Source of the DNA: Gammaproteobacteria bacterium
Lineage (GTDB): Bacteria > Pseudomonadota > Gammaproteobacteria > GCA-001735895
Direction of reading: 5' to 3'
Assembly (NCBI GenBank): GCA_029862125.1
Contig: JAOTXY010000001.1
Coordinates: 1-64,000, forward strand
Length of the DNA: 64,000 nt
Shown here: positions 48,070-63,780 of the stretch, in pieces
Layout: every line of letters begins with the position of its first letter
Numbering within the stretch: position 1 is the stretch's first letter
Translations under genes and position numbers: made by a program
The notes under the pieces: generated by a model
Database searches by the model: none
What the model was told of the DNA's origin: nothing
The model's input: the letters and a program-made list of their open reading frames with translations, nothing else

Positions 48070-48455
48070 ATAAAATTTTAATCGCAGACGATGAACCGCA
48101 TGTACTGCGGGTACTGAAACTCTCGCTCGAGAAAGAGGGCTACGCGGTGGAAACCTGTGCCAACGGCAAGGAGGCCCTCACCCAGCTCGAACAGCAACAT
48201 CCCGATATCCTGATTACCGATATCCAGATGCCGCAGATGACCGGCGAGGAATTGTGTCGGCATATCAAGCAGCATATGCCCGAGCGCAAATTCCTGATTT
48301 TCGTACTCACCTCGCGCACCGAAATCGAACACCGCGAGTGGTCACGCGATATCAACAATTTACTGTTTCTCGAAAAACCGGTCAGCATCCGCAACCTGTT
48401 GGAAAAGATCGAGGGTTACTTTTCTGGAGCATCCGATAGTTGGAGGGCATCCTGA
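48066..48455 (+). CDS. Stand-alone CheY-like response regulator
   Basis: A 129-residue receiver domain with the acidic pair in IADDEPHVL, phosphoacceptor Asp52 in ITDIQMPQMTG, the switch Thr/Ser region VLTSRTE and the invariant Lys in FLEKPVS. There is no output domain, so phosphorylated regulator must act by protein contact, perhaps with the GGDEF-EAL protein or the STAS-ATPase encoded directly downstream. It shares its last base with the start of the next gene. Confidence 0.92.
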   Translation: MNKILIADDEPHVLRVLKLSLEKEGYAVETCANGKEALTQLEQQHPDILITDIQMPQMTGEELCRHIKQHMPERKFLIFVLTSRTEIEHREWSRDINNLLFLEKPVSIRNLLEKIEGYFSGASDSWRAS

Positions 48456-50653
48456 TGGCTACCGTGCCTGACAGCAGCGTTCATTTTGATCATTATCTTA
48501 CCCTGCTGAAGGGTTTTTGCCCGGATGTGCGGGCGATGGTCGTGTTCGATCACGAGCAAAGTTGCATCTGGCAGGGCGACGCCAGTCCCCTTGATCTGGA
48601 TCAGGTGGTACCCCAGCTGAAGTCATTCCGTGCAGGTGACAGCGATGACGTACGGGTAACACTTGGCGACAACGCTAGCCTCGAGCTGATCAACCTGAGA
48701 AACACACACGGGGAAATAGCGCTAACCCTGGGTATCGAGGCCGTGGACAAGACTGTACAAGCGGTGGCGGCGAACCAAAATATTGGCTTGCTGAATGAAT
48801 TTTTACTGGCTGACTACGAACAAAGCCTGGCGCTCGCGACCAAGGAAGACGAGCTCAACCATATGACCGACGAGCTCACCCGACGTTACGAAGAACTCAA
48901 CCTGATCTACAAGGCCGAGGACCAGGCGCTCAATATTTACCATGGACGCGAACTGTTGCGACAGCTGGTGATGAATACATCGCGTTTCCTTAACGTCGAT
49001 ATTATTTTTCTCTACATCGCGGGCAAAAATATCGCGATGCATAAATACAAAAACGATAATCCGTTGTTCGAATCGGACAAACTGTTTGACTATCTGCGTG
49101 ACTCGGTTTACCCGTTACTCGAAACCGATCCGCAGTCCCTCGTCATCAACCATATCGAAGACGCCAGAATGCATAATTTCACCCAGAATACGCCGTACAA
49201 ACATGTCGTCAGCCCGGTCGTCAACGCCGAAAATCAGGTTATCGGACTGCTCGCGATTGCGAGCCAGAATTTCAGTGTTGATTTCTCCAATAGCGATCGA
49301 AACCTGCTCGACGTGATGTCGAAAAAGGCCTCCAAGATCGCCCAGTCCCATTTCGATCCCTTAACTGGGCTTGAAAATAGCAACAGTTTTGAACTCATCA
49401 TCAAGGATTTGTTAAAACAATCTTCGGGTACAGATGTTAACCACGCCATCGCTAATGTTGACATTGATCGTATGGCGGTGGTGAACGATATCAGCGGACG
49501 CGATGTGGGTGATCTGTTGATTAAGAAGGTTGGGCAGAAACTCGCCAGCATGGTGCGCTCGCGCGATGTGGTGGCGCGCATCGGTAGCGACAAGTTCGGA
49601 GTGTTACTGGAAAATTGCGATTTGCCGACAGCACAAATCGTCATGAAAAAAATTTCCCATGCGGTCTCTGCCATAGATTTTAAATGGGAGGGCGAGTCAC
49701 ACGAAATCAGCGTCAGTATCGGTATCGCCCCGATCACCGCCGAAACGCAGTCGGTGACCAGCCTCATGAATGCTGCCGAAACTGCGCGTAACGTGAGCAA
49801 GGAACGTGGTCGTAACAGCATCCATGTGCTCGATCTGGAAGACAGCAATTTACTGGAGCGCAAGGACCAGATTCGCTGGGTTGGGCTAATTCAGGCAGCG
49901 TTGCGCGAAGACCAGTTCATGCTGTATGCGCAATTGATCAAGCCTTTAAAGACAAAAACGGCTAAACCACATTACGAACTACTGTTACGTATGCGGGGTA
50001 ATGATGGCAGTGTAATTCCACCTGGGAAGTTTCTGCCCGCCGCAGAAAACTTTTACCTGATGTCGAGCATTGATTACTGGGTGATCGGCCAGGCTTTCAG
50101 CGAGCTAGCCAAGCATAACCGGGAATCCGGACAGGGATGTGAGGTCTCGATCAACCTGTCGGGACAGTCGCTGAGCGACCCGGTCGGTTTTGCCGCTTAT
50201 ATTGGTAATAAACTCGAGCAACATCAGTTGGACCCTAGTGATATCTGTTTCGAAATTACCGAGTCATCTGCGATCGAAAATATTGATGATGCCCGCTTTT
50301 TTATCGATCAGGTAGGAGCTTACGGTTGTCAGTTTTCACTCGACGATTTTGGCACCGGCCTCAGTTCCTTTGCCTACCTCAAAAACCTTAAAGTCAGTTA
50401 CCTGAAGATCGATGGCAGCTTCGTTACCGACATCGTCACAGACCCGGTCAGCGAGAGCATGGTCTCGGCGATCAACCAGGTGGGGCATGCAATGCAGTTG
50501 CAAACGATTGCCGAATTCGTCGAAAACGATGCGATTGCGCAAAAGCTTGTCGACATCGGTGTCGATTATGGACAGGGTTATGGTTTCGGCAAGCCCGTAC
50601 CATTCGATGAAATCCTATCCTCGCTGCCGAGCTCGAAATCGAAGTCGGCGTAG
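48455..50653 (+). CDS. GAF-GGDEF-EAL protein (degenerate GGDEF, intact-looking EAL)
   Basis: A 732-residue cytosolic signalling protein. After an N-terminal domain of unknown type (1-115) and a coiled stretch (about 125-160), a GAF-like domain spans about 165-305. The GGDEF domain (about 305-465) has GSDKF at the signature and no RxxD inhibitory site, so cyclase activity is doubtful. The EAL domain (about 485-725) has ELLLR for EALLR, and DDFGTGLSSF and DYGQGYGFGKP are well kept, so c-di-GMP hydrolysis or binding is plausible. GGAGGG precedes ATG 48455; a longer TTG start is unnecessary. Confidence 0.88.
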   Translation: MATVPDSSVHFDHYLTLLKGFCPDVRAMVVFDHEQSCIWQGDASPLDLDQVVPQLKSFRAGDSDDVRVTLGDNASLELINLRNTHGEIALTLGIEAVDKTVQAVAANQNIGLLNEFLLADYEQSLALATKEDELNHMTDELTRRYEELNLIYKAEDQALNIYHGRELLRQLVMNTSRFLNVDIIFLYIAGKNIAMHKYKNDNPLFESDKLFDYLRDSVYPLLETDPQSLVINHIEDARMHNFTQNTPYKHVVSPVVNAENQVIGLLAIASQNFSVDFSNSDRNLLDVMSKKASKIAQSHFDPLTGLENSNSFELIIKDLLKQSSGTDVNHAIANVDIDRMAVVNDISGRDVGDLLIKKVGQKLASMVRSRDVVARIGSDKFGVLLENCDLPTAQIVMKKISHAVSAIDFKWEGESHEISVSIGIAPITAETQSVTSLMNAAETARNVSKERGRNSIHVLDLEDSNLLERKDQIRWVGLIQAALREDQFMLYAQLIKPLKTKTAKPHYELLLRMRGNDGSVIPPGKFLPAAENFYLMSSIDYWVIGQAFSELAKHNRESGQGCEVSINLSGQSLSDPVGFAAYIGNKLEQHQLDPSDICFEITESSAIENIDDARFFIDQVGAYGCQFSLDDFGTGLSSFAYLKNLKVSYLKIDGSFVTDIVTDPVSESMVSAINQVGHAMQLQTIAEFVENDAIAQKLVDIGVDYGQGYGFGKPVPFDEILSSLPSSKSKSA

Positions 50654-50659
50654 ATAATC

Positions 50660-52741
50660 GTGTCCGACGCGAATATAGTCAGTATTGAAGAAGGCTTAAG
50701 CCCGGGAACGGTCACTAAAAACCGGGTCGGGGCAATGACCCATCTGTTCCCGCGTGGAAATCTGACCGACCCCGAATTGCTGGACGCGTTAAGTGCGGCG
50801 GTCGACGAAAGCATTGCCAGCCAGGAAGTACAGTTGATCATCGACATGGTGAGCGTATCCCTGATCGACAGCAAAGCCCTCGAATCCCTGTTTGACCTGC
50901 GCCAGGACCTTGCCAGGGCCGGTGGCTGGTTGAAAGTCACCAATGCCAAGCCGCTGATCCGTGACATATTCCTGGTAACCGGCCTGGACCAGGTCATCGA
51001 TATCGTCAACAGTTTTAATATCGATAAACCCGAGGTGGTCAGGCCTGACACGACCAGCAGCGAGGGTATTCGCATAGGTGATCTGCTGGTTAACAAGGGA
51101 CTGCTATCCAAGGAAAAAGTCGAAGAGGCGATCGTACTGCAGAAAAAGAGCGGTAAGCGTCTGGGGCAGATTATCGTCAGCAAGGGCTGGGTCAGCGAAG
51201 ACGTTTTCCTGACCGCACTCGGTGAACAGTTGGGGATTCCCCACATTGTTATGCGCCAGGGACTGGTTGATCACGACGTTTTTACCCAGCTAGAGTTAGA
51301 GGTGTCACAAAGACTCAAGGTGGTACCGATGTTCCTGGTGCACGGTGAGCTTACATTGGCGACGTCGGATCCACAGGCCATTGCCAGTTTCAGCGAAATC
51401 GAAGAGCGGCTGGACTGCAAGATCCGCCCGGTACTGGTTCGCAAAAGCGACATCGTCAAGAGCCTGAACGAAGCTGGTTCCGGCAGTATCTACGATGCCG
51501 AGAATCTCGAGGATCTCGACGACGATTTCGAGTTTATCGACAACACGCCTCCGGATGATTATACCGGAATCGATGAAATGGCAGCGGGTAGCCCGGTCAT
51601 CAACATGGTGAATTCGATTATTCAACGCGCGGTGCACGACAAGGTCAGCGATATCCACATCGAGCCCTCGCAAAAAAAGTGTCGCGTGCGGTTCCGCATC
51701 GACGGTTTGCTGTACGAAGTCATGACGCCGCGTATCGAGCTGCACCCGGCCCTGGTGTCTCGCCTCAAGGTTATGGCCAACCTCGATATCGCCGAACGCC
51801 GCATGCCACAGGATGGTCGCATCCAGGTGCATACCCAGGGACGCTCGGTAGACCTGCGCTTCAGCTCCCTGCCCGGGTTACACGGGGAAAAAGTGGTGCT
51901 GCGCGTACTCGACAAGAACCAGTCAATTCTCGATATCGAAAAACTCGGTATGCAGGAACCCAATGTCATTACCTACAAGCGCCTGCTGGATCGCAGTTAC
52001 GGCTTGATCCTCGTCACCGGGCCCACCGGTAGTGGTAAAACCACGAGCCTGTACTCGGCGATTAACTATCTCAACAGCCTCGAAAAAAACATCGTCACCA
52101 TCGAGGACCCGGTCGAATACCAGCTCGATATCGTCAACCAGAACCCGGTGCGCGAAAATATCGGCCTGAGCTTTGCCAAGATGCTCAAGCACGTACTGCG
52201 CCAGGACCCCGACGTGGTCATGGTCGGTGAAATACGTGAACGTGAAACCGCGGAAATCGCGGTGCAGGCGGCCCTGACCGGGCACCTGGTGTTGTCCACG
52301 CTGCACACCAACGACAGCATCGGCGCGGTCACGCGCATGATCGACATGGGGGTCGAACCTTACCTGCTGTCCTCGGCCCTGATAGGTGTGGTCGCGCAGC
52401 GCCTGGTGCGCTCGATCTGCCCCAATTGCAAGACCGAGTTTCTGGCGAGCCCCGAGATGATCGAGAAATACGGCTGGCAGGACCAGGGCAAGGTGCGCCT
52501 GTCCAAGGGCCGCGGCTGTGCCGAATGCTACGATGCCGGCTATCGCGGGCGTATGGGTATCCACGAAATTATCGAAACCAATCCCGAGCTGCAGCGCCTG
52601 ATCATCGCCAACGCGTCGCGCGATGAACTCACCGATTATCTGAACCAGCACGAGATCAAGCTGTTGTTCGATGATGGTATCGATCGCGTGCGCGAAGGCC
52701 AGACCACGATTGAAGAAATCTGGCGCGCGGTCAACAGCTAG
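50660..52741 (+). CDS. GspE/PilB-type secretion ATPase with N-terminal STAS domain
   Basis: A 693-residue fusion. Residues about 20-120 form a STAS domain (LIIDMVSVSLIDSKAL with Ser71 at the phosphorylatable position, then GGWLKVTNAKPLIRDIFLVTGLD). Residues about 130-280 are a T2SSE/MshE N-terminal domain (IGDLLVNKGLLS, LGEQLGIP). The rest is the AAA-like motor with Walker A GPTGSGKTT (454-462), VMVGEIRERETAEIA, and a four-Cys zinc site in CPNC and CAEC. It begins with GTG 6 bp after the EAL gene. The motor powers pseudopilus assembly through the GspF protein 15 bp downstream. Confidence 0.93.
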   Translation: MSDANIVSIEEGLSPGTVTKNRVGAMTHLFPRGNLTDPELLDALSAAVDESIASQEVQLIIDMVSVSLIDSKALESLFDLRQDLARAGGWLKVTNAKPLIRDIFLVTGLDQVIDIVNSFNIDKPEVVRPDTTSSEGIRIGDLLVNKGLLSKEKVEEAIVLQKKSGKRLGQIIVSKGWVSEDVFLTALGEQLGIPHIVMRQGLVDHDVFTQLELEVSQRLKVVPMFLVHGELTLATSDPQAIASFSEIEERLDCKIRPVLVRKSDIVKSLNEAGSGSIYDAENLEDLDDDFEFIDNTPPDDYTGIDEMAAGSPVINMVNSIIQRAVHDKVSDIHIEPSQKKCRVRFRIDGLLYEVMTPRIELHPALVSRLKVMANLDIAERRMPQDGRIQVHTQGRSVDLRFSSLPGLHGEKVVLRVLDKNQSILDIEKLGMQEPNVITYKRLLDRSYGLILVTGPTGSGKTTSLYSAINYLNSLEKNIVTIEDPVEYQLDIVNQNPVRENIGLSFAKMLKHVLRQDPDVVMVGEIRERETAEIAVQAALTGHLVLSTLHTNDSIGAVTRMIDMGVEPYLLSSALIGVVAQRLVRSICPNCKTEFLASPEMIEKYGWQDQGKVRLSKGRGCAECYDAGYRGRMGIHEIIETNPELQRLIIANASRDELTDYLNQHEIKLLFDDGIDRVREGQTTIEEIWRAVNS

Positions 52742-52756
52742 GAACCGGGATAAAGC

Positions 52757-53878
52757 ATGGCGATTAACACCAGACAGCACGCGCTCGTGGCACAGGCATC
52801 AACCTCGTTGCCCGTGTCAAAACCAAAATTTCAGCTCAAGCAGGCCGTCGGTGACAAGGAACGCCGCTTCTTCACCGAGCAAATGTCTTTACTGCTGGAG
52901 ACCGGCACCCCGCTACAGCAGAGCCTGCAGGCAATGAAAAAGCAGATTGAAAACCCGGCGATGCTCGAGCTGCTCGATCAACTCATCGACGATATCGCCC
53001 AGGGCGTACAGTTTTCGACCGCGCTGGCCAAGCATCCCACGGTTTTCTCCACCACCTATACCAACCTGGTTGCGGCGAGCGAGGAAGGTGGTTTCATGCA
53101 CGAAGTACTGCAACAGCTGCTGGCCCTGGACGAGAAACGCGAAGAGTTGCGCAAGACCATGGTTTCGGCGCTGTCATACCCGGTATTCCTGCTGGTGTTT
53201 GCGTTGGCCGTAGTGGTGTTCGTGCTGGTGGTGGTGTTTCCGAAGTTTGCCGACCTGTTTTCGCAAATCCAGGACCAGTTACCCGTGACCACCAAATTCC
53301 TGATGGCCACCAGCAATGTTTTGAAAGATCACTGGATCGAGTTGACCGTTGGGCTGGTGGTGTCGATCGGCGGTTTCAAGTTCTGGTCCGCGACCGAAAA
53401 CGGCATCCGCAAGCTCGACTGGGCCAAATTGAATTTCCCGCTGCTGCGGCACATTTTCGTCCAACTTTACCTGGTCAATACGATGCGGGTGTTGAGCATG
53501 TCGCTCGGCAACGGTGTGGGCATGATGGATTCGCTGCATGCCTGCAAGTTTGTCGTTAAAAACAGCCTGTTCCAGGAATTTATCGGGCAGGTCGAAAACC
53601 AGGTCGAAACCGGCAACGGTATCGCCGCGGGCTTTCAGAATACCAGTTTCATTCCGCCGATCGTCGAACAGATGATCAGTACCGGCGAAGAAACCGGAAA
53701 TTTACCTAAAGTTATGAGCCGCCTGGCCGATTATTTTGAAGGCGAGCTTTCCAGCAAGCTGCAAACCCTGTCGCGACTCGCAGAACCGGTCATGTTGCTG
53801 ATTATGGGGGGTGTCGTGGGATTGATCGTAAGTTCGCTGATATTGCCGATTTTCAAACTAACCCGGGTCGTTGGGTGA
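52757..53878 (+). CDS. GspF/PilC-type inner-membrane platform protein
   Basis: A 373-residue T2SS_F protein with two homologous cytoplasmic domains (about 35-155 and 240-345) and three membrane segments (YPVFLLVFALAVVVFVLVVVFP, a second at about 195-215 and MLLIMGGVVGLIVSSLILPIF at the end). Family residues include FFTEQMSLLLETGTPL, AASEEGGFM, GMMDSLHAC and STGEETGNLP. It is the partner of the STAS-ATPase and anchors the growing pseudopilus. A 119-bp gap before the next gene is the only sizeable break in the operon core. Confidence 0.93.
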   Translation: MAINTRQHALVAQASTSLPVSKPKFQLKQAVGDKERRFFTEQMSLLLETGTPLQQSLQAMKKQIENPAMLELLDQLIDDIAQGVQFSTALAKHPTVFSTTYTNLVAASEEGGFMHEVLQQLLALDEKREELRKTMVSALSYPVFLLVFALAVVVFVLVVVFPKFADLFSQIQDQLPVTTKFLMATSNVLKDHWIELTVGLVVSIGGFKFWSATENGIRKLDWAKLNFPLLRHIFVQLYLVNTMRVLSMSLGNGVGMMDSLHACKFVVKNSLFQEFIGQVENQVETGNGIAAGFQNTSFIPPIVEQMISTGEETGNLPKVMSRLADYFEGELSSKLQTLSRLAEPVMLLIMGGVVGLIVSSLILPIFKLTRVVG

Positions 53879-53997
53879 GGAAAATCAATAGTTTATGTTA
53901 ATTGAATCACGGTTTTCAGCGATGCAGGCAAAAATTTGAAATATCGTGACTATACTCAAAAAAGCTAGATTTACTTGAATTTTAAAGGGTGAGAAAA

Positions 53998-54570
53998 ATG
54001 CAACCAATCCGCAACGCAATCCAGAAGGGATTTACCCTCGTCGAACTGTTGATCGTGGTTATCATACTGGCGCTGCTGGCTGCCATCGTGGTGCCGCAGT
54101 TTGCGTCTTCCACCGATGACGCCAAGCTCGCATCGCTGGATACCACGCTAGGTAACGTGCGTTCCTCGATCGACCTGTACTTTCAGCAACACGGTGAATA
54201 CCCGGGTGCGCTGACCGCGGTAGACGCGGCCTGTGCTGACACCACTGGTACCGGCACCGGTGGTGCGGGTGCACAAGGCGTGCAGGCCTTTGCCGACCAG
54301 ATGAGTCTGTATACCGACGCCGATGGTGGCGCCTGCAGCGTCAAGGATGCCAACTTCAAATTCGGGCCCTATCTCAAGAAGGCAACGCTGCCTGCCAATC
54401 CGATCACCACAGTGGCCACGCTCGAAGTGATCAATACCGGCGACCTGGTGATGGCCGGAAGCGGTGCCAACCTCGGCTGGAAGTACGATATCGTGGTCGG
54501 CAAGTTTATTGCCAACGATACCACCGACCCGGATGGCGCTGGTCCCGAAGTTTCCTACGACCAACGCTAG
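53998..54570 (+). CDS. Major pseudopilin GspG-like
   Basis: A 190-residue prepilin with a short basic leader and class-III cleavage site QKG-FTLVELLIV, including the Glu at +5, then the hydrophobic helix IILALLAAIVVPQF. The globular part has HGEYPGALTAVD, two cysteines (about 79 and 108) that may pair, and a C-terminal NDTTDPDGAGPE segment compatible with the calcium site of GspG. ATG 53998 with AAAGGGTGAG as ribosome site is preferred over GTG 53989. It is longer than classical GspG (about 140 residues) because of a Gly/Thr-rich loop. Confidence 0.9.
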   Translation: MQPIRNAIQKGFTLVELLIVVIILALLAAIVVPQFASSTDDAKLASLDTTLGNVRSSIDLYFQQHGEYPGALTAVDAACADTTGTGTGGAGAQGVQAFADQMSLYTDADGGACSVKDANFKFGPYLKKATLPANPITTVATLEVINTGDLVMAGSGANLGWKYDIVVGKFIANDTTDPDGAGPEVSYDQR

Positions 54571-54581
54571 ATTGAAACAGT

Positions 54582-55166
54582 GTGTGTCTCGGGCGTTACC
54601 CCCAGGTTATAAAACGTAACACGCAGGCTGGCTTCAGCCTGCTGGAAATCTCTATCGTAGTACTCATCCTGGGGATCATGGCCATCGTCGTGATCCCCGA
54701 TTCCGCTCCCGGCAACCAGCAAAAACTCGATCTCGCCGCAAGCCAGATTGCGCAGGCGCTGCGCTTTGCGCACCGCGAGGCTTTGCGCACCGGCGAACAT
54801 CATGGCGTCACCATCAGCCAGGTCACGCAAACCATCACGGTCAAAAAATGGGACATGACGACCGACCCGGTCAGCACCGAGCTGATACCTTACCACCCGG
54901 TCAACAAGCAGAGTTTCGTCTTCGATGCCGATACCATGAGTCTTGCCCCGGGCGTGTCGATCATCAACAGCAGTGATATTTTCAACTACATCAGCATCGG
55001 GCGTCGGCGTAGCCTGATCTTCGACCCGCAAGGCGTGCCGGTGTGGGTGCTCGGTTCCGACGACAGCGTTTACCGTCTGCTCGACGGGATCGTACAACTC
55101 AGCGATGGCCAGAACCGGCGCGACATCGCGGTCGCACCGCTGACTGGCAGGGTGATGGTTAAATGA
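54582..55166 (+). CDS. Minor pseudopilin GspH/FimT-like
   Basis: A 194-residue protein with prepilin signal TQAG-FSLLEISIVVLIL (Glu at +5) and a beta-rich C-terminal part with AQALRFAHREALRTGE, typical of GspH. No ATG is available near the start; GTG 54582 gives an 18-residue leader. It is 11 bp after gspG and overlaps the next gene by 4 bp. It probably joins the pseudopilus below the tip complex. Confidence 0.85.
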   Translation: MCLGRYPQVIKRNTQAGFSLLEISIVVLILGIMAIVVIPDSAPGNQQKLDLAASQIAQALRFAHREALRTGEHHGVTISQVTQTITVKKWDMTTDPVSTELIPYHPVNKQSFVFDADTMSLAPGVSIINSSDIFNYISIGRRRSLIFDPQGVPVWVLGSDDSVYRLLDGIVQLSDGQNRRDIAVAPLTGRVMVK

Positions 55167-55585
55167 AACAACGGCAAGCGGGTTTCTCCTACCTGGAACT
55201 GCTGATCGCGACCCTGCTGATCGTGATCATGCTGGTGCCGGCGCTCGACGCTATGCAAAGCGGTATCCAGGGCAGTGGCATCCATACGCAACTGGCGCAG
55301 AACCAGTATCGAATGATCTCGAAGATGGAAGAGACCCTGGCGCTGCCGTTTGCGCAGTTACTGGAACAGGCTGACCTGGTCGCCGACCCGACCGTGTTGA
55401 TACCCGCACCCTTTTCTGATCCCGCAGGTACCGAATCCCGCCGCCTTGTGTTTCTGGCGCGTTACGATGGCGACAACGCCGATGGTAACGACAATCCGTT
55501 TAATGGTACCGATGAGGGTTTGCTGTGGGTACGGATTACGATCGAAAACAGCCCGCGTGCGCTGGAGACCGTGATCGTTGAATAG
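55163..55585 (+). CDS. Minor pseudopilin GspI-like
   Basis: A 140-residue protein with signal RQAG-FSYLELLIATLL and Glu at +5. The remaining sequence is short and acidic, with an unusual DGDNADGNDNPFNG stretch (about residues 100-113) before the last strand, comparable to the Asp-rich insert in the next gene. GspI proteins form the tip trimer with GspJ and GspK. Order H-I-J-K and 4- and 8-bp overlaps identify it. There is little else to recognise. Confidence 0.8.
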   Translation: MKQRQAGFSYLELLIATLLIVIMLVPALDAMQSGIQGSGIHTQLAQNQYRMISKMEETLALPFAQLLEQADLVADPTVLIPAPFSDPAGTESRRLVFLARYDGDNADGNDNPFNGTDEGLLWVRITIENSPRALETVIVE

Positions 55586-56597
55586 CGTCCCACCAACCCG
55601 GTCGTCGCCGCGACTTCTCGCTGGTAAGCACGGTTTCACCTACGTCGAACTGATGATAACGCTCGCGATCGCGTCGCTGATCATTCTCGGCCTCACCGGT
55701 GTGGTCGGACAGGCACTGCAGTCGCAGGATACGGTCTCGGCGACCAATCAGTTGACGCGTGATGCGCGCTTTGCGATGCAACGCATGCTGCGCACGATTA
55801 CCCATTCGCGTCGTTTACTGCTTCCATTCAGGGATAAACCGGCATCCAACTGGCCGGAAAATATACGTGAGCAAACCGTGCCGCCCTCCGCACCGATCGG
55901 AGATAGCACCTTCGCCACCGCGGTGCTCGCGGTGACGCTGCCGGCTTATGTTGACCTGGACAACGACGGCTTCCCGGATGCCGACGACGACAGGGATGGC
56001 CTGATCGACGAAGATTTACCGAATGATAACAACCACGATTTCTTTCCCGGCATCATGCTCATCGACGACGACGGCGATGGTCAGATCGATGAGAACCCTT
56101 CCTACTGGTGGGACGATGACGAAACCAACGCGGTTTACAACGAGGATCCGCTCAACGGTATTGACGACGACGATGATAATAACGTCGATGAAGACACGGC
56201 CAGCGACCAGAATGGTGACGGTTGCCCGGGAGTCTGTGGTGTCGACGATGATGGCGACGGATCGATCGATGAAGGCAACGACGATGACGATGACGAGGAT
56301 GGAAATACTTTCGACGATCCTTATGACCCAGTTGTCTTTTACCTGAACAGTGGGTCCCTGGTCGAACGCATGCCAGCGCCCTGGGACACCGACGGTATCA
56401 GCGTGCCCGATGGGCCGGTCGATGGGCGAGATTTTATCGAATCGGTGATTGCCGACAACGTCACCCGGTTTCGCGTCGAGCGCCTCGATAACGGTAGTGT
56501 GTTCGAAGTCATTGATCTCACGCTCGAACTCACCAGTCCGCTCACCGGCGAAACCGTGAGCCTGCAAGCCCAGGTCCGGGTCGGGGGTGCGTTGTGA
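55578..56597 (+). CDS. Minor pseudopilin GspJ-like with Asp-rich calcium-loop insert
   Basis: A 339-residue GspJ-like protein starting at TTG 55578 (no ATG available), with signal GKHG-FTYVELMITLA and Glu at +5. Residues about 126-250 form an insert of repeated acidic loops: DLDNDGFPD, DDDGDGQIDE, DDDDDNNVDE, DQNGDGCPG and DDDGDGSIDE. These DxDxDG loops resemble EF-hand or thrombospondin type 3 calcium sites, with two Cys that may close one loop. The following GspJ fold resumes with VFYLNSGSLVER and VTRFRVERLDNG. Usual GspJ length is about 200-240, so the insert accounts for the excess. Confidence 0.88.
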   Translation: MNSVPPTRSSPRLLAGKHGFTYVELMITLAIASLIILGLTGVVGQALQSQDTVSATNQLTRDARFAMQRMLRTITHSRRLLLPFRDKPASNWPENIREQTVPPSAPIGDSTFATAVLAVTLPAYVDLDNDGFPDADDDRDGLIDEDLPNDNNHDFFPGIMLIDDDGDGQIDENPSYWWDDDETNAVYNEDPLNGIDDDDDNNVDEDTASDQNGDGCPGVCGVDDDGDGSIDEGNDDDDDEDGNTFDDPYDPVVFYLNSGSLVERMPAPWDTDGISVPDGPVDGRDFIESVIADNVTRFRVERLDNGSVFEVIDLTLELTSPLTGETVSLQAQVRVGGAL

Positions 56598-59500
56598 TCC
56601 GCTCGGTAAAACAAACCGGCTATATCCTGCTGCCGGTGATCGTCGTGATCACGGTGGTGGCGGCGATCGCGTTGCTGATGAATACCGAAAGCGCGCTTGA
56701 AAGCAATACCGCCGGCAGCGAACTCGACGCGCAGCAGGCACAATACGTTGCCGAGGCGGGATTGAATCATGCCCTGTGGCTGGCGCAACAGCAGGGCTGT
56801 GGCCCGTATAGCAATCTGACCGACGAGCCGCTGGATAACGATAAATACACCTCCAACCTGACCACCGACCTCGGCAGCACCACCAGCTATTCGAGTACCG
56901 TGGACCAAGATACGTGGATCACAAGCAACCAACCGGACGACAATAAAGGCAGCGATGGCGTCCTGCATGTCGGTTTCAATAGCGGTGATAGCGAACGCCC
57001 GTTACTGCGCTTCGATCTGTCTTCAATTCCGGTGAAGGCCGCGATTCTGTCAGCCACGGCCTGGTTTTATGTCGACCAGTCCCATCCCGAAGGGGCGGTC
57101 GACATCCATCGCATCACTGCCGACTGGATCGAGACTGACGCTACCTGGAACACGATGAACGCCAACATGGATAGCGCCGTGATCACCAGCATTCCGCCTC
57201 AGCCAACCAGCGATGTATGGGTTGCGGTCAATCTCACCAGCCAGGTGCAGGCCTGGATTAACGACCAGCCCAACTATGGCATTACGCTGAACTCGACCAG
57301 CGAGGGCGTCGATGGCAGATACGATAGCCGCGAGTCTGCCAACGCGCCCTACCTCGAAGTTATCGTCGGTACACCGCCGACGTCACCGGCGCTGCTGAAA
57401 GCGGTCGGTATGCTCGCCAACGGCGTCACGCGAGACATCACTCGCAACGATGTGGTGTTGTATCAACATCCACCGGGAATGCTCCAGCTGCAGCCTGGTG
57501 CGGCGGATGGGGAAGACGCCGAAATCTGGGATCAGGCACCCAACAATAACTACGGCGCCGCTGATGAAACCTGGGTTTCATCAGCGGTCAGTGATACCAC
57601 GCGTTCACTGTTGCGCTTCAACCTGGGTGCGATACCGGCCGGTGCGAGAATTATGCGTGCAGACCTGTCCCTGGAGCGGGAGAGCGGTTCCGGGGCGGAC
57701 CAGCCGGTGTCGGCACATCGCATCGTGAACCCGTGGAGCGAAGCCTCGGTGACCTGGAACCAACGGGAATCCGGCACCAACTGGGACACCGCTGGTGCCG
57801 ATTTCGATAACATGGCGATTACGACGACTCCGGTCGGTCCGGTAAACCAGCGCTATGCCTGGAACATTACGTCGCTGGTGCAAGGCTGGGTTGACGGCAG
57901 TTACCCGAACTACGGCGTTGCACTGGTCGCCGCGATCGCGGGAATGCCGGGTGAGCGATTCTATACCAGCGACGAAACAGATGAGACGCGGCGTCCGCGC
58001 CTGATGATTAACTATACCTGCGCCTGCGACGAAATTTGCGCGAGGCCACAGGGCGGCGGCAACCTGCTGATGGTGGTGATCAATCCAACCACGCTGGTGG
58101 CCGAGGATCAAAAGGCGAAAGACCTGTTCGAATCCTGGGGCTACACGGTTTCCGTCATCAGCGAAAGCGCCAACCAGTCCACCTATGATTCCCTAATCGC
58201 GCTTAACGATGTTGTGTTTATCTCGGAAACCGTGAATTCGAACTCGGTCGGTACCAAGTTGGTCAACGCCCCGATCGGCGTCGTCAGCCAGGATGGCGAT
58301 TACAATCCCGATCTCGGACTGGCCCCGGGTGCGTCGCTCAAAATCGGCGGCGATATCGATATCGTCAGTACCGATCACTACATTACACAGCCGTTCGCCG
58401 TCGGAACCCACCGGATCTATACCGCCGACATGGAACAGGCCATCGTCAGCGGCAGCCTGACCGCCGATCAGCAGACGCTCGCCGAGAACGCCGGCGATGG
58501 TTCGCTCGTGGTGCTCGACAGGGGCGACGCAATGGAGGGTGGTGGCACTGCCGCAGGGCGCCGCGTGATCCTACCGCTTGGCACCCGTTACCGCTTCGAC
58601 TGGGATTACCTCAACGCCAACGGCCGGCTGCTGGTGCAGCGTGCGCTCGCCTGGGGTATGTCCAAGGACAAGTTCAGCAAGGGTAATGTCTTGCTAGTGG
58701 TACCGGACCCGGCGAGCCTGAACTCGCGTGACAGCTCCAAGCAGGCACTGATCGAATCCTGGGGTTACACGGTCAACCTGATCGACGACAGCGATAGCCA
58801 GGCCAACATCGATGCGGCGGCGGCGGCGAACGATGTCATTTACGTTTCCGGGTCGATCTCCGGCGGCGCGTTGGCCGACAAGCTGACCGGTTCGCCGACG
58901 CCGATCGTCAACGAGTTCAACGGCAAGCTCGACAACTTCGGTTTTTCCAGCTCGACTGGCAATACGGTATCGGCCGATACATTTACGTCAACCAATGCGG
59001 CGCATTATATTTCTGAAACCTTCGCCGGCGCCGCGACGACTGTATTCTCGTCCAGCCTGACGATGCCGGTACCGGGCGGCACGCTGGCGCCGGATTTGGA
59101 GACCGTTGGCGAAACTGCTGGTGCGGTAGCGGCGCTGGTGACTCTCGATACCGGCGCGCAGCGCTGGGACGGAAATCCGGCACCGGCGCGGCGGGTACAC
59201 CTGCCGTTCGGCAGCGCTGAGACCAGCCAGCTGACCGCCGACGGTGAAAACCTGATGCGGCGCGCGCTCGAATGGGCCGGCGGCGCCGGATGCGTTGACA
59301 TGCAACCGCTGCTGCTGGTCGTCGGTGATGCGGCGACGCTATCCAGCAAGGACGATGGCATGAAGACCCTGATACGGTCCTGGTGTTACAGCGTTACTGT
59401 CATCGATGACGGCGACAGCCAGGCTAATTTCGATGCCGCAGCCGCGGCGGTGGACGTGGTCTACGTGTCGGGAACTACATCGGGTCCGTCACTACAGGAC

Positions 59501-61537
59501 AAATTGACCGGTTCACCGACACCGATCGTGAACGAGATCAACGGTAAGCTGGATAATTTTGGTTTTTCCAGTTCGACTGCCTCGAGCGTGAGCGCAAGTG
59601 CTTTTAGTGCAACCGATGCGTCGCATTATATTTCCGAACCCTTCACCGGTAATCCGGTCACTGTATTTACGACCGACCTGGCGATGCCGGTACCCGGCGG
59701 TACGCTGGCGCCGGACCTGCAGATCGTCGGCGAAACCACCGGTGCGATACCGGCGCTGGTGACTCTCGATACCGGCGCGCAGCGCTGGGACGGAAATCCG
59801 GCACCTGCGCGGCGGGTACACCTGCCGTTCACCAATGCGGAACCGAGCCAGTTGACCGCAGATGGGGAAATCCTAATGCGGCGATCAATCGAGTGGGCCG
59901 GGTCCCCCTTACCCGGCCCGATCGCGCACTGGAAACTCGACGATGCGGTTGGGATGACAGCAATCGACTCGGTCGGCGGTAACGACGCGACGCTGAACGG
60001 TAATCCCGCCTGGACCACGGGGGTTGCGGACGGTGCACTCGAGTTTGACGGCAGTGGTGACTATGCAACGACCGATAATCCCTTTACCCCGCCGCCAGTG
60101 GGTACCGTTTCGTTCTGGATGAAAGTGCCCGGGTCACCGGCATCGCACGGTCGCATACTCGGGCTCGACGACACCTGGGAAATCCGCCATGTCACGACCG
60201 GCACCCCCGACGGTATTGCTTACGGGCTGGTGTTCGACCTCGGTGTTACCGGCGTCAATACCGAATTTGTCACCACCGTCACTGTCGATACACCGGACCA
60301 ATGGTATTTCGTGGCCGCGACCTACGATACCAACACCGATGCCTACCAGGTCTACCTGGACGGCGTGCTGCACAAGAGTGGAACCTATCCTTCCGCATTA
60401 GCGGTGCCGGCTGCCAACCCGCTATCGCTGGGTACCAGAACCGGTTCCAGCAATTACTTTACCGGTACTCTGGATGACGTGCAGATTTACGATCGCATCC
60501 TGAGCGCGGGCGAGATTGCCGAATTCTATTCCGCCGGTGCACCCGCTGTAGCCGCTTACACCGAACTTTACGAACCCTGGACCGCGGCCACGCCGGACAA
60601 CTGGGAAACGGTTTCGCTGGTAACTTTCGGCGTGCCGGCCAACGCGGTGGTCGAAGTTGCCGTAATCAACGAGGCGACCAGCGCACAACGCTGGGGCGGA
60701 GTGCGTGCGGTCGGATCGACGCTGGATCGGCGTTTGCAATTGCAGGAAGCCGAGGCCGGCGGCATCGATGTCGTCACCATGCACGTGCAGGCCGATGTCA
60801 GCAGCCAGATTGAACATTATTCCGATAACACCAGCCAGATCAGTTTCATCCTGCTCGGTTACTGGACCGGCGCGGTTTATGTCGAATTGATGGATCCTTT
60901 CACTGCCAATGCCAGCAATAGTTGGGTCGAGGAAAGCCTCGCCGATGATGGCCTCGGACCTAACCAGGTGGCCGAAATCGCGATCGTCAATACAAATACC
61001 GGAGCCGAACGACTGGCCGGGGTTCGCCCCTCGGGCGCCACTTATCAACGGCGATTTATGCTGCACGAAGCCGAATCGGGTGGCGTCGATGCTTTGTCGA
61101 TGATGGTCACCACCGATGCGTCATCGATCGCCGAGGTCTTCGCTTCGAGCAGCGCGGATGTCGATTTCTACGTGCTCGGCTATTGGGACACGTCGCCGGG
61201 AACCTACACCGCGACCGGGGGCGCCCACGGTCAGGTATCGTCGCCGATGAGCTGGGAGACGATCGATCTGAGCAGCTACGGTGTTCCGGTGGATTCGGTC
61301 GCACAGTTCGTACTCGCCAACGAAAACCAGGGCACCGAAAACAGCATGCGCGTGCGTGAAGTCGGTTCGACGATCAATAACAGGGCCCTGCTGCTGCACG
61401 AAGCCGAGGCCGGCGGTTCCGATCTCGGCAGCCTGCACGCCAACGTCGATGCCAGCCAGCAGGTGCAGTGGGCCGCGGCACAGGGCCCAGCGGGTGGTTT
61501 CTTTTACCCGGTCGGCTGGTGGGTGTTGTCGCCTTAA
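56594..61537 (+). CDS. Giant GspK/PilX-like minor pseudopilin with adhesin-type mosaic
   Basis: A 1647-residue protein starting at GTG 56594, overlapping gspJ by 4 bp. The N-terminus KQTG-YILLPVIVVITVV is a prepilin signal lacking Glu+5, as in GspK, followed by a short GspK/PilX-like AQYVAEAGLNHALW. Then come two DNRLRE-like domains (about 99-265 and 298-475), three roughly 207-residue ThuA/amidotransferase-like repeats (about 485, 695 and 902 onward; LLVVxDxxxL, GYTVxxIDD, VVYVSG), a LamG/concanavalin domain (about 1107-1315; IAHWKLDD, GALEFDGSGDY) and three ~107-residue repeats (from 1321, 1428, 1536). It is probably the surface tip. GspK is normally about 300 residues. Confidence 0.88.
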   Translation: MIRSVKQTGYILLPVIVVITVVAAIALLMNTESALESNTAGSELDAQQAQYVAEAGLNHALWLAQQQGCGPYSNLTDEPLDNDKYTSNLTTDLGSTTSYSSTVDQDTWITSNQPDDNKGSDGVLHVGFNSGDSERPLLRFDLSSIPVKAAILSATAWFYVDQSHPEGAVDIHRITADWIETDATWNTMNANMDSAVITSIPPQPTSDVWVAVNLTSQVQAWINDQPNYGITLNSTSEGVDGRYDSRESANAPYLEVIVGTPPTSPALLKAVGMLANGVTRDITRNDVVLYQHPPGMLQLQPGAADGEDAEIWDQAPNNNYGAADETWVSSAVSDTTRSLLRFNLGAIPAGARIMRADLSLERESGSGADQPVSAHRIVNPWSEASVTWNQRESGTNWDTAGADFDNMAITTTPVGPVNQRYAWNITSLVQGWVDGSYPNYGVALVAAIAGMPGERFYTSDETDETRRPRLMINYTCACDEICARPQGGGNLLMVVINPTTLVAEDQKAKDLFESWGYTVSVISESANQSTYDSLIALNDVVFISETVNSNSVGTKLVNAPIGVVSQDGDYNPDLGLAPGASLKIGGDIDIVSTDHYITQPFAVGTHRIYTADMEQAIVSGSLTADQQTLAENAGDGSLVVLDRGDAMEGGGTAAGRRVILPLGTRYRFDWDYLNANGRLLVQRALAWGMSKDKFSKGNVLLVVPDPASLNSRDSSKQALIESWGYTVNLIDDSDSQANIDAAAAANDVIYVSGSISGGALADKLTGSPTPIVNEFNGKLDNFGFSSSTGNTVSADTFTSTNAAHYISETFAGAATTVFSSSLTMPVPGGTLAPDLETVGETAGAVAALVTLDTGAQRWDGNPAPARRVHLPFGSAETSQLTADGENLMRRALEWAGGAGCVDMQPLLLVVGDAATLSSKDDGMKTLIRSWCYSVTVIDDGDSQANFDAAAAAVDVVYVSGTTSGPSLQDKLTGSPTPIVNEINGKLDNFGFSSSTASSVSASAFSATDASHYISEPFTGNPVTVFTTDLAMPVPGGTLAPDLQIVGETTGAIPALVTLDTGAQRWDGNPAPARRVHLPFTNAEPSQLTADGEILMRRSIEWAGSPLPGPIAHWKLDDAVGMTAIDSVGGNDATLNGNPAWTTGVADGALEFDGSGDYATTDNPFTPPPVGTVSFWMKVPGSPASHGRILGLDDTWEIRHVTTGTPDGIAYGLVFDLGVTGVNTEFVTTVTVDTPDQWYFVAATYDTNTDAYQVYLDGVLHKSGTYPSALAVPAANPLSLGTRTGSSNYFTGTLDDVQIYDRILSAGEIAEFYSAGAPAVAAYTELYEPWTAATPDNWETVSLVTFGVPANAVVEVAVINEATSAQRWGGVRAVGSTLDRRLQLQEAEAGGIDVVTMHVQADVSSQIEHYSDNTSQISFILLGYWTGAVYVELMDPFTANASNSWVEESLADDGLGPNQVAEIAIVNTNTGAERLAGVRPSGATYQRRFMLHEAESGGVDALSMMVTTDASSIAEVFASSSADVDFYVLGYWDTSPGTYTATGGAHGQVSSPMSWETIDLSSYGVPVDSVAQFVLANENQGTENSMRVREVGSTINNRALLLHEAEAGGSDLGSLHANVDASQQVQWAAAQGPAGGFFYPVGWWVLSP
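59131..59209 (+). repeat. 79-bp direct repeat within the giant gspK gene, copy 1
   Basis: This stretch is repeated at 59752-59830 with a single mismatch in 79 bp, 621 bp (207 codons) apart. It encodes the ALVTLDTGAQRWDGNP region of ThuA-like repeats 2 and 3. Flanking parts of these repeats are less similar in DNA, suggesting a recent local conversion. Confidence 0.85.
59752..59830 (+). repeat. 79-bp direct repeat within the giant gspK gene, copy 2
   Basis: Second copy of the element at 59131-59209; it reads cacctgcg where copy 1 has caccggcg. Confidence 0.85.
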
Positions 61538-61605: not shown

Positions 61606-62832
61606 ATGAAAATAAATATTCCCAAACAAATACGTTCGGTATGGTCGAGTACGCACTATGATTCGCCCGAGCTGACGCGCTTTGCCCGACGCAAAGCGGT
61701 TGCGGAGGCGCGCAAGGGGCTGGCGGCGATGAGTATATTGACCATGGGGATTTTACTGATCGAAGGCACGCTCTATGTCAAGTTTGCGCTCGACCCGATG
61801 TACCTCTACACCTGCGCGATCCTGGTGTTGTTGTCGCTCAATATGGTGTTTGCCTCGCGCACCGTCGGCGATCCCCAGGCATTGCATTTACTCGGTGTCA
61901 CGCTGCTGGCGGTCTCCGGTAGCGCTTTTATATTACTGGCGCACTACCAGCATGTTTTTCACCCGATGTTGTTTGCCAGTGTCGCGATGCTGTTCATTGT
62001 GATACCGATGATGTCCTGGGGCCTCGGCGAAGCGCTCGCGGTGACGCTGCTGATCTATACCATGTTTACCCTGTCGACGCTGGAGGCCAATTATAATTTT
62101 GCCGATCAAAGCCTGTGGACCTTGCAATTCATTATGCTCGGCGCGAGCACGGTCAGCTTGTCGCTGGTGGTGCGCAACGTCAGGCTACGCAAGCACGACG
62201 TCAAAGCCCAACACGACCTGGTGGTCGCGCATGCGCAGATCACGGATTTGTCAAATCGAGATCCGTTAACGAGTGCCTGGAATCGACGCTATTTTGACCT
62301 CGAATTCGAGCAATACCTGAAGCAGTGTCGTGAAAATCAAAATCAATTCCATTTCATGCTGCTCGATGTCGACGATTTCAAGCTGATCAACGATGATTGC
62401 GGGCACGAAAGCGGCGACCAGGTGCTCAAGAATATCGGTCAGGCGTTTAGTAGTGTAATCGACGACCATGGCAGCCTGGTACGCATGGGGGGTGATGAAT
62501 TCGCAGTGATTTTCGCCGACCTCGATCCCAAGGTTATTGCGATTCGGGGATTGAAAATATTCTGTGATTTAAATGCTGCGAGTAAATATGACCTGATAAA
62601 GCAGGCAAGCCTCAGCATCGGAGTCGCTAGTGTGCCGCCTGATATCGAAGTCAGCTATCGCCAGCTTTACAAACAGGCAGACCTCGCGCTTTACCGGGCA
62701 AAAGCGCTAAAAGATAATAATCCTGCACCACCGAATATTGTCATCAGTATTTTGCACGACCCCGATGATGTTCTCAGCAGTACTCGAAGTTTGTGGAAAA
62801 TGCCGGAAAGCGTTAGCAAGGCCGCCAACTAG
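61606..62832 (+). CDS. Membrane diguanylate cyclase (GGDEF)
   Basis: A 408-residue protein with about six membrane segments (residues 40-200), a coiled linker (VRLRKHDVKAQHDLVVAHAQ) and a complete GGDEF domain (about 225-385: DLSNRDPLTSAWNRRYFD, LLDVDDFKLINDDCGHESGD, RMGGDEFA). No RxxD inhibitory site precedes the signature. It should make c-di-GMP, opposing the EAL protein at the other end of the operon. It starts 68 bp after the giant gspK gene in the same direction. Confidence 0.92.
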   Translation: MKINIPKQIRSVWSSTHYDSPELTRFARRKAVAEARKGLAAMSILTMGILLIEGTLYVKFALDPMYLYTCAILVLLSLNMVFASRTVGDPQALHLLGVTLLAVSGSAFILLAHYQHVFHPMLFASVAMLFIVIPMMSWGLGEALAVTLLIYTMFTLSTLEANYNFADQSLWTLQFIMLGASTVSLSLVVRNVRLRKHDVKAQHDLVVAHAQITDLSNRDPLTSAWNRRYFDLEFEQYLKQCRENQNQFHFMLLDVDDFKLINDDCGHESGDQVLKNIGQAFSSVIDDHGSLVRMGGDEFAVIFADLDPKVIAIRGLKIFCDLNAASKYDLIKQASLSIGVASVPPDIEVSYRQLYKQADLALYRAKALKDNNPAPPNIVISILHDPDDVLSSTRSLWKMPESVSKAAN

Positions 62833-62916
62833 GCGCGTCTGTTTTATCACCTGATTGTTAATGAATCGGCGCTTGCTGCCGATCTATTGACTAATTACCG
62901 ATTCGGATGCCTCCGT

Positions 62917-63780
62917 ATGAGCAATCAATGGGAAAAGGTCACCATCCAGGCCAACCTGGTGACGTTGCCGGATATCTACTGGCAACTCAAGGAAATTCTC
63001 GATAGCCACGACTACTCGATGCAGGACGTGGCGCAATTAATCGTCTACGACCCGGGATTGACGGCGCGCATGTTGCGCATCGTCAATAGTGCTTATTTCG
63101 GCTTCGCCGCTAAGATTGATACTGTCACTCATGCGGTTTCGATTCTCGGAGTGCAACAAATCCGTGACCTGGTGTTAGCGACAGCGATTGCCGATGCGCT
63201 CGGCGACTACGAATGCGAACATCTTGACGTCAAGCAATTCTGGCTGCGCAGTGTTTATCGCGCGATTGCCGCGCGTAACCTGGCGGGCGTCTGCAGCCTG
63301 ATGGACGGTGAGCGCATGTTTGTGGCGGGCCTGTTGAGCGGCGTCGGTCACCTGATCATGTACCAGTCGATACCGGTACTGGCGCAGCAGGCACAGCGCG
63401 AGGCCGAGGCCAACGGAAAACCGCTGCATCGGGTCGAGCGCGAAGTGATTGGTTTCGATCATGCCAGGGTGGCGAGCGGGTTGATGAAGAACTGGCAGCT
63501 GCCTGACAGCCTGGTTGCGGTGATCGAGCATCACCTGGAACCGGACCCGGCGGCAGATTACCTGCTCGATACCGCGATTGTGCATATCGCCGCTTTGATT
63601 GGTGAGGCGTTTGCGCAAAATCGGCCACTGGACGAGGTTTTGGTGAATGTAGATGGCCATGCCTGGGATGCCACCGGGCTCGATATCGGCCGCTGCGAAG
63701 CCGTCGATGTCGAGGTTTCCGAGCAGTTAAACAGCGTCGTCAACATGTTATTTCCGAAACTGCAACGTGCAGCGGGATAA
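62917..63780 (+). CDS. HDOD-domain protein
   Basis: A 287-residue HDOD protein (domain about 15-215) with LPDIYWQLKEIL, IVYDPGLTARMLRIVNSAYFG, VSILGVQQIRDLVL and the FVAGLLSGVGHLIMY segment. HDOD domains are degenerate HD relatives found in signalling proteins, generally without proven catalysis. The longer frame from TTG 62887 is not needed; ATG 62917 fits the family start. It is last in the co-directional run, 84 bp after the diguanylate cyclase, and probably integrates with the same c-di-GMP circuit. Confidence 0.88.
   Translation: MSNQWEKVTIQANLVTLPDIYWQLKEILDSHDYSMQDVAQLIVYDPGLTARMLRIVNSAYFGFAAKIDTVTHAVSILGVQQIRDLVLATAIADALGDYECEHLDVKQFWLRSVYRAIAARNLAGVCSLMDGERMFVAGLLSGVGHLIMYQSIPVLAQQAQREAEANGKPLHRVEREVIGFDHARVASGLMKNWQLPDSLVAVIEHHLEPDPAADYLLDTAIVHIAALIGEAFAQNRPLDEVLVNVDGHAWDATGLDIGRCEAVDVEVSEQLNSVVNMLFPKLQRAAG

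What the first reader, a model, noticed from the sequence alone, without database searches (positions are those of the whole stretch)
56594..61537. A 1647-residue GspK-like protein with DNRLRE, ThuA-like, LamG and novel C-terminal repeats
The N-terminus is a prepilin signal without Glu+5, in gspK position. Instead of a roughly 300-residue tip subunit, it carries at least nine extra domains of types associated with carbohydrate or surface binding. The three C-terminal repeats (EPW/DPF-T-A..W, then VxE(V/I)A(V/I)xN..T..(E/Q)R, then LxExEAGG) do not match any family I can name.
Basis: partly seen in the sequence, partly recalled or inferred. Interest (0 to 1): 0.8.

Follow-up and report, generated by a model that had tools for sequence, protein, structure and literature searches.

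The report
Giant multi-domain pilus-tip adhesin
A bacterium carries a very large minor pilin, probably worn at the tip of a surface filament, whose added sugar-binding-type domains end in three tandem domains predicted to fold as one covalent C1q-like trimer of a kind also found beside a virus tail gene.

Summary
In detail: window 56594-61537 is one intact 1647-codon gene, last of the minor-pilin genes, with nine added domains. It is a modular minor pilin of the PilX/K type in a complete, c-di-GMP-linked type IV filament locus (the last five genes lie just past the window), not a GspK proper. The fusion is no accident: a syntenic gene directly after the preceding minor-pilin gene was found in 27 of 32 named loci; in the other 5 the contig begins there. 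New points: (1) the first CBM96 domain sits inside the pilin domain; relatives without it have an uninterrupted pilin; (2) the shortest relatives (311-331 aa) are pilin + one CBM96, most with a CxCxxxC motif at the end, and larger forms add cargo after that motif; (3) the ThuA-like fold is supported by modelling, and cargo is swapped between relatives; (4) the three "novel" C-terminal repeats have no Pfam match but are predicted with high confidence to fold as one single-chain pseudo-trimer like C1q/TNF heads, and nine copies (three triplets) occur in a phage gene next to a tape-measure gene. Function (tip adhesin) is inferred, untested. New variant of a known kind.

The parts
46225..48069 (+). 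PAS sensor histidine kinase, first gene of the filament locus
   Evidence: HisKA, HATPase_c, PAS
48066..48455 (+). response regulator receiver
   Evidence: Response_reg 1.9e-26; kept in relatives
48440..50653 (+). GGDEF-EAL protein
   Evidence: EAL 1.3e-60, GGDEF 3.3e-32
50660..52741 (+). extension ATPase (STAS + MshE-type c-di-GMP motif + T2SSE)
   Evidence: T2SSE 2.6e-137, MshEN 1.6e-11, STAS 1.4e-08; NF053729 62.4 bits, cut-off 38
52757..53878 (+). platform protein (GspF/PilC/MshG type)
   Evidence: T2SSF 1.1e-51
53989..54570 (+). candidate major pilin (GspG-like N-terminus)
   Evidence: N_methyl 1e-07; TIGR01710 9e-13, below cut-off
54582..55166 (+). minor pilin, GspH/MshC position
   Evidence: N_methyl 5.9e-05
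55163..55585 (+). minor pilin, GspI/MshD position
   Evidence: N_methyl 0.014, below cut-off; syntenic
55578..56597 (+). minor pilin, GspJ/MshO position, with Asp-rich repeats
   Evidence: N_methyl 0.0011, below cut-off; translation
56594..61537 (+). giant modular minor pilin (X), 1647 aa; mature form 1638 aa, 173 kDa if cut after Gly9
56594..56893 (+). pilin core, first half (residues 1-100: leader, long helix 12-67, first strands, Cys69)
   Evidence: model secondary structure; uninterrupted-pilin HMM 5.6e-33
56894..57367 (+). CBM96/DNRLRE domain 1 (residues 101-258), nested in the pilin core
   Evidence: CBM96; absent from several relatives
57377..57508 (+). pilin core, second half (residues 262-305)
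   Evidence: HMM of uninterrupted pilins matches 251-308, 5e-06
57509..58018 (+). CBM96/DNRLRE domain 2 (residues 306-475)
   Evidence: NF033679 best stretch 307-472; VIA Z 20.6 to 8wab, 18.5 to 7vbo
58019..58039 (+). CxCxxxC motif (Cys476, 478, 482), end of the base
   Evidence: 39 of 42 relatives; invariant in 25 of 25
58052..58693 (+). ThuA/GATase-like domain 1 (residues 487-700)
   Evidence: VIA Z 14-16 over 170-189 residues; no Cys
58736..59347 (+). ThuA-like domain 2 (residues 715-918)
   Evidence: 32% identical to domain 1
59357..59908 (+). ThuA-like domain 3 (residues 922-1105), likely recent copy of domain 2
   Evidence: 75% aa identity; 81% nt over 411 columns
59909..60544 (+). LamG domain (Pfam match residues 1152-1309)
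   Evidence: Laminin_G_3 6.6e-24
60554..60871 (+). C-terminal repeat 1 of the predicted pseudo-trimer
60872..61180 (+). C-terminal repeat 2 of the predicted pseudo-trimer
61184..61534 (+). C-terminal repeat 3 of the predicted pseudo-trimer; protein ends in VLSP
61606..62832 (+). diguanylate cyclase (GGDEF)
   Evidence: GGDEF 3.6e-37; syntenic
62887..63780 (+). HDOD signalling protein
   Evidence: HDOD 1.4e-58

Best explanation
X is a modular minor pilin that caps a c-di-GMP-controlled, MSHA/T4aP-like filament and acts as its adhesin. The prepilin peptidase (coded elsewhere in the genome) cuts after Gly9. The 56-residue helix enters the tip of the filament; lacking Glu+5 and carrying a bulky load, it most likely sits at the very tip. 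The pilin core with CBM96 domain 2 and four nearly invariant cysteines (69, 476, 478, 482) forms the base; a second CBM96 is inserted in a loop of the pilin sheet. Past the base follow ThuA-like spacer or binding domains without an amidotransferase cysteine, a LamG lectin-type domain, and a terminal head of three tandem jelly-roll repeats that fold against each other as one covalent C1q/TNF-like pseudo-trimer. Because only one X fits at a tip, a head that is normally a homotrimer must be coded three times in one chain. Shown: gene, synteny, domain content, nesting, cargo swapping. Predicted with good confidence: folds and pseudo-trimer. Inferred: processing, tip location, glycan or surface binding, disulfides, c-di-GMP control of extension.
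For: Synteny: 27 of 32 named loci with cargo have the O minor pilin directly before X, the other 5 begin in or just before X. Complete machine: ATPase with c-di-GMP motif, platform, pilins, then PilM/PilN/PilO/secretin just past the window. Pilin identity: the A6 profile finds L144 (1.6e-23), which passes PilX_N. Nested CBM96: an HMM of 7 uninterrupted pilins hits 22 of 25 CBM-inserted proteins in two separated halves. CxCxxxC in 39 of 42. CBM96 fold: Z 20.6 to a chondroitin-sulfate-binding and 18.5 to an alginate-binding module. Pseudo-trimer: pLDDT 91.5, pTM 0.91; Z 12.4-13.8 over 300-313 of 334 residues to five entries of TNF/C1q-type trimers, four of them titled single-chain, next row 6.2. 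Same triplets with the same linkers in a phage gene beside a tape-measure gene. Precedent: modular pilins and a lectin-module pilin bind host ligands (PMC8179133, PMC9934059; passages read).
Against: No experiment. In the window's own protein the prepilin families score below their cut-offs (PilX_N 13.9 of 25.5; GspK 13.3 of 130; N_methyl not hit). Tip position rests on analogy. Pairing of the pilin strands across the inserted CBM96 was not seen in coordinates. Foldseek alone gave rmsd 7.7-10.4 and TM below 0.5 to the PDB trimers; the inter-repeat packing is a prediction from 6 sequences. The tree does not show that phage and pilin triplets correspond position by position. Most same-genus genomes searched lack X.
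Confidence: 0.7

Rival explanations
1. The locus is a secretion system of T2SS type and X is an outsized pseudopilus tip that pushes or sorts an unknown exoprotein.
For: ATPase, platform and first pilin score best with GspE, GspF and GspG models, all below cut-off; gene order E-F-G-H-I-J-K; secretin in the locus.
Against: Inner-membrane partners match PilM, PilN and PilO; no T2SSK hit; no exoprotein gene recognised in the locus; two further ATPase-secretin pairs on contig C18 may already be the T2SS (inference); cargo is binding-type.
Confidence: 0.13
2. X is carried out through the filament machine and released or left on the cell surface as a matrix or adhesin protein, not held in the filament (as TcpF and CofJ are said to be exported by T4bP).
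For: Very large ectodomain; CBM96 and LamG domains are also found in non-pilus proteins.
Against: The long pilin helix with Gly9 and the pilin sheet are conserved in relatives that cover the N-terminus; secreted substrates of this kind keep no pilin module (recalled).
Confidence: 0.1
3. The C-terminal triplet is not a trimer-like head but three independent beads that lengthen the stalk or bind ions.
For: One repeat alone resembles the Bd2133 fibre tip only weakly (Z 4.8, 3.1 A over 104 residues); Foldseek TM to PDB trimers is below 0.5.
Against: Three copies in 8 of 9 carrier genomes (the ninth, G028, has two on a contig that begins there) and in three triplets of the phage gene; high pTM and whole-length match to trimer entries.
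Confidence: 0.12

Closest known systems
Modular pilins PilB and PilC of Streptococcus sanguinis (PMC8179133, PMC9934059; passages read)
   Same: A pilin module with a grafted binding module; PilC carries a concanavalin A-like lectin module; proposed tip location.
   Different: X is 1647 aa with nine added domains (the most extreme case named in that 2021 survey was 860 residues); its pilin is PilX-like without Glu+5; one module is nested inside the pilin domain; the locus has a secretin.
GspK of type II secretion
   Same: Last gene of the minor-pilin row, no Glu+5, an extra domain inserted in the pilin sheet (GspK as described in PMC8179133 and PMC9934059).
   Different: T2SSK family not hit; the insert is a CBM96, not an alpha-domain; PilM/N/O partners.
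MSHA pilus with putative adhesin MshQ (PMC7096442, PMC6668835; passages read)
   Same: MshE-type c-di-GMP motif, no prepilin peptidase in the locus; gene order E-G-A-C-D-O-P-Q as recalled.
   Different: Adhesin domains are fused to the last minor pilin; no mshM-type gene recognised among the locus proteins scanned.
Bdellovibrio mosaic adhesive trimer fibres (PMC10769870; passages read)
   Same: Interchangeable trimeric beta-sandwich or TNF-like tips, with glycan binding shown for one.
   Different: Those are homotrimeric fibres; here three protomers are in one chain on a pilin.
CBM96 modules (7vbo alginate-binding, 8wab chondroitin-sulfate-binding)
   Same: Fold and family of the two base domains.
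   Different: Not attached to an enzyme here.

Membership tests
Modular type IV pilin (Raynaud et al. 2021) | class III signal peptide: leader ending in Gly/Ala before about 21 hydrophobic residues | tested here: met
   Gly in 23 of 23 filled rows, helix 12-67; read from sequence, not by the IPR012902 signature
Modular type IV pilin (Raynaud et al. 2021) | IPR012902/N_methyl signature used to collect proteins in that survey | tested here: not met
   PF07963 not among hits at E<=1 for X; a survey by that signature would miss it. So I say 'works like' and 'is built like' a modular pilin rather than 'belongs to that collection'
Modular type IV pilin (Raynaud et al. 2021) | additional non-pilin functional module | tested here: met
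   CBM96, LamG
Modular type IV pilin (Raynaud et al. 2021) | assembled into a filament | not testable with these tools
   needs purified filaments
GspK | T2SSK domain | tested here: not met
   no PF03934 hit at E<=1; NF037980 13.3 bits vs 130
GspK | no Glu at +5, last of the minor pilin genes | tested here: met
PilX | PilX_N above gathering score | tested here: inconclusive
   X 13.9 bits vs 25.5; homologue L144 35.6 bits
MSHA pilus (Denise et al. 2019) | mshA, mshE, mshG, mshL, mshM | tested here: inconclusive
   ATPase, platform, pilin, secretin present; no mshM-like gene recognised in the scanned locus; that paper's own profiles not run
MSHA pilus (Denise et al. 2019) | no prepilin peptidase in the locus | tested here: met
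   the only Peptidase_A24 match of the assembly is on contig C71
C1q/TNF superfamily (C-terminal repeats) | sequence match to a family model | tested here: not met
   no C1q or TNF model at E<=1 in 18 repeats
C1q/TNF superfamily (C-terminal repeats) | jelly-roll protomers packed as a three-fold head | tested here: inconclusive
   on a predicted model only: VIA Z 12.4-13.8, rmsd 5.1-5.4 over 300-313 residues; Foldseek TM below 0.5
CBM96 | PF24517 above gathering score | tested here: met
   112.9 bits vs 26, two stretches
ThuA / class I GATase | family model match | tested here: not met
   no Pfam hit at E<=1; fold only: Z 14-16, ThuA-like and GATase rows close together
ThuA / class I GATase | GATase nucleophile Cys | tested here: not met
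   no Cys in domain 1; lone Cys900 and Cys931 in domains 2 and 3, neither in a GxCxG setting by eye

The most novel reading that the evidence does not exclude
A pilus solves the 'one subunit at the tip' problem by coding a trimeric C1q/TNF-like receptor-binding head three times in one chain; the head is a mobile cassette shared between pilus tips and phage tails, docked onto an ancestral PilX-CBM96 base whose CxCxxxC motif marks the fixed attachment point for swappable cargo.
Probability: 0.5. Interest if true: 0.8.

Novelty: new variant of a known kind. Interest (0 to 1): 0.64.

Why it matters
It gives a concrete architecture for how diderm T4-type filaments may carry many binding modules on one minor pilin: a conserved base (pilin + CBM96 + cysteine motif), a module nested in the pilin sheet, and swappable cargo that surveys based on the N_methyl signature would not see. 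The single-chain pseudo-trimer offers a testable answer to how a one-copy tip subunit presents a trimeric head, and the phage match points to exchange of receptor-binding heads between phage tails and pili. Carriers include records named as lucinid, tubeworm and gutless-worm symbionts (host groups by recall), so host colonisation is a testable role, though Oceanisphaera and Methylomonas carriers show that it need not be the only one.

Tried and rejected
Secreted hydrolase: no catalytic family in X; weak one-off hits (TGFb_propeptide, 'TafC', Toxin_R_bind_N in a relative) overlap CBM96 or LamG and were set aside as look-alikes. TadZ_N, DUF6027 and GP40 hits to single repeats are chance level. 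Profile search of the repeats against PDB sequences found nothing meaningful, so the tie to the Bdellovibrio Bd2133 tip is structural and weak only. Phage and plasmid record collections: C-terminal repeats no match; full X finds only partial matches, in the rows shown CBM96 or LamG parts, in 29 plasmid records. Position-by-position descent of phage and pilin repeats: not resolved; each position as one clade not rejected (AU p 0.078-0.169), pilins as one clade p 0.061. A second viral scan with the phage protein found only the same contig. Literature: 10 paper searches; only the passages cited were read; no paper joining DNRLRE or C1q-like heads to a pilin was seen in these listings, which cover open-licence PMC only.
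Full report
Observation. Window 56594-61537 (+) is one open gene of 1647 codons. Families: two CBM96/DNRLRE (CBM96 1.8e-32, DNRLRE 7.5e-58), LamG (6.6e-24), a sub-threshold PilX_N at residues 15-58 (0.054) and a sub-threshold GspK N-terminus (0.045). Internal repeats: CBM96 1-2 33% identical; ThuA-like 1-2 32%, 1-3 29%, 2-3 75%; C-terminal 1-2 and 1-3 40%, 2-3 33%. ThuA-like copies 2 and 3 are 81% identical at DNA level over 411 columns, which I read as a recent duplication.

Locus. Upstream are a PAS histidine kinase, a receiver, a GGDEF-EAL protein, an ATPase with STAS and MshE-type c-di-GMP motif, a platform protein and four small pilins; downstream a diguanylate cyclase and an HDOD protein. 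Past the window end, on the same contig, follow PilM, PilN, PilO, a small protein with weak CdsD_C/T2SSB hits, and a secretin. The only prepilin peptidase match of the assembly is on contig C71, and three shorter T2SSE matches on C103 look like the PilT/PilU kind (my reading). In the survey of Denise et al. (PMC6668835, passages read) MSHA loci likewise lack a peptidase but require mshM, which I did not recognise here; so I call the locus MSHA/T4aP-like and do not file it as MSHA.

Relatives. Searching 57 related genomes gave a match in 15; two of those (G024, G049) match over LamG only. X-type proteins are in 10 of the 31 same-genus genomes including the window's own (one, G028, as a C-terminal fragment). 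Orthologues of the ATPase at 83% identity or more are in 9 same-genus genomes at full length, all of them X carriers, plus G006 (88%, partial match, no X found, 62% complete assembly); G015 has X near a contig end without that ATPase. In the rest of the family six genomes have the ATPase (67-82%): X was found in G034 and G035, not in G032, and G781-G783 were not searched for X. So the locus comes and goes largely as a unit. In 27 of the 32 the O gene lies directly before X; the other 5 (L036, L051, L055, L057, L061) begin inside or within 261 bases of X. Record titles include Candidatus Thiodiazotropha, Escarpia and Lamellibrachia symbionts, Olavius algarvensis Gamma 3 symbiont, Woeseiaceae, Sedimenticola, Oceanisphaera, Methylomonas and a Desulfuromonadales MAG.

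How it is built. In L058 and in six further named relatives (L062-L067) the pilin reads straight through without CBM96 domain 1. An HMM of these seven matched 22 of 25 domain-1-bearing proteins in two separated halves (window 6-102 and 251-308); L037 gave the first half only, L051 and L057 the second only, the latter two because their contigs start inside the gene; second halves are weak in some (0.012 in L040, 0.0044 in L049). A class-wide search with the pilin profile found 23 of 369 genomes at E<=1e-6, 12 of them at about 1e-20 or better with open frames of 328 to 1693 aa. I read this as a CBM96 nested in the pilin sheet, as an alpha-domain is in GspK (PMC8179133). Insertion rather than loss is favoured because the shortest forms lack it, but no root was tested. 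A CxCxxxC motif follows a CBM96 in 39 of 42 proteins (missing in L135, L141, L145), and Cys69 is kept in 24 of 24 filled rows. The minimal forms L143, L144 and L066 (311-331 aa) end at or just after the motif; L145 (319 aa) is similar without it. L144 passes PilX_N.

Cargo. Relatives carry LamG once or twice, more CBM96, LDL-receptor B repeats (L060), Reelin/MAM-like parts below cut-off (L047). Between the window and G020, the filament proteins E to O are 85-96% identical while parts of X range from 47 to 88% and the LamG is not found in G020: mosaic, fast change of the exposed part.

Folds. Residues 1-705: pLDDT 87, pTM 0.82, 25 sequences; CBM96 rows Z 20.6 (8wab, chondroitin sulfate) and 18.5 (7vbo, alginate); ThuA-like domain 1 Z 14-16 to GATase and ThuA-like chains. 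Domain 1 lacks cysteine, so it cannot be a Cys-type amidotransferase. LamG and ThuA-like 2 and 3 were not modelled. Residues 1314-1647: pLDDT 91.5, pTM 0.91, 6 sequences. VIA-align: 4zch 13.8, 4dou 13.2, 5hkj 13.1, 5hzf 13.1, 5kca 12.4, each over 300-313 residues, the next row 6.2. The first four are titled single-chain TNF/C1q-type trimers; 5kca holds a Cbln1 C1q trimer, and that it is one chain is my inference from the aligned length. Foldseek alone ranks 4dou second at TM 0.47. The BFVD search's best row is a phage protein of 401 residues (TM 0.52) and its third a phage protein named C1q domain-containing (TM 0.51).

Distribution of the C-terminal repeat. 9 of 41 genomes of the family, all in the window's genus; 1 of 398 in a phylum sample (own); 2 of 369 in a class sample (own, and one weak partial hit). 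One IMG/VR contig of 160 kb has it: the gene after a tape-measure gene (tape-measure PHROGs 1e-30) has nine repeats (1.6e-11 to 2.7e-33) in three groups of three, each group with the same two linkers as the pilin (G-Y/F-W-x-G and GYWxxxPGxY, read). A tree of 24 repeats (15 pilin repeats from 5 of the 6 aligned proteins, L037 left out as near L036; 9 phage) keeps pilin third repeats together (96/92) but does not resolve phage-pilin correspondence.

Reading. The parts fit a modular tip pilin (PMC8179133 and PMC9934059, passages read), here with a secretin, far larger than the 860-residue extreme of the 2021 survey, and ending in a predicted covalent trimer. Bdellovibrio fibres (PMC10769870, passages read) show TNF-like and other trimeric tips, with glycan binding for one; such homotrimers need three chains, which a one-copy pilin tip could not supply. 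That last argument is mine and untested. MshE-type control by c-di-GMP is known in Vibrio (PMC7096442, passages read).

Noticed in passing
L108:4935-10283 (IMGVR_UViG_3300014914_000003): Phage gene next to a tape-measure gene with nine C1q-like repeats in three triplets; no PHROG family matched it.
   Followed up: partly
window:55578-56597: The O minor pilin carries Asp-rich repeats that look calcium-binding.
   Followed up: no
L050:3359-5590: A relative has an extra diguanylate-cyclase-like gene inserted between the A and C pilin genes.
   Followed up: no
L065:9980-12932: In Oceanisphaera psychrotolerans the X gene is split into two ORFs of 230 and 702 aa; pseudogene, sequencing error or real split not tested.
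   Followed up: no
L139 and L140 (G298): One genome has two X-type loci on different contigs.
   Followed up: no
window:3356-17747: Purine/urate/allantoin breakdown cluster (xanthine dehydrogenase-type parts, urate oxidase, allantoicase).
   Followed up: no
window:50660-52741: The extension ATPase has an N-terminal STAS domain before the MshE-type c-di-GMP motif, an unusual addition as far as I recall.
   Followed up: no
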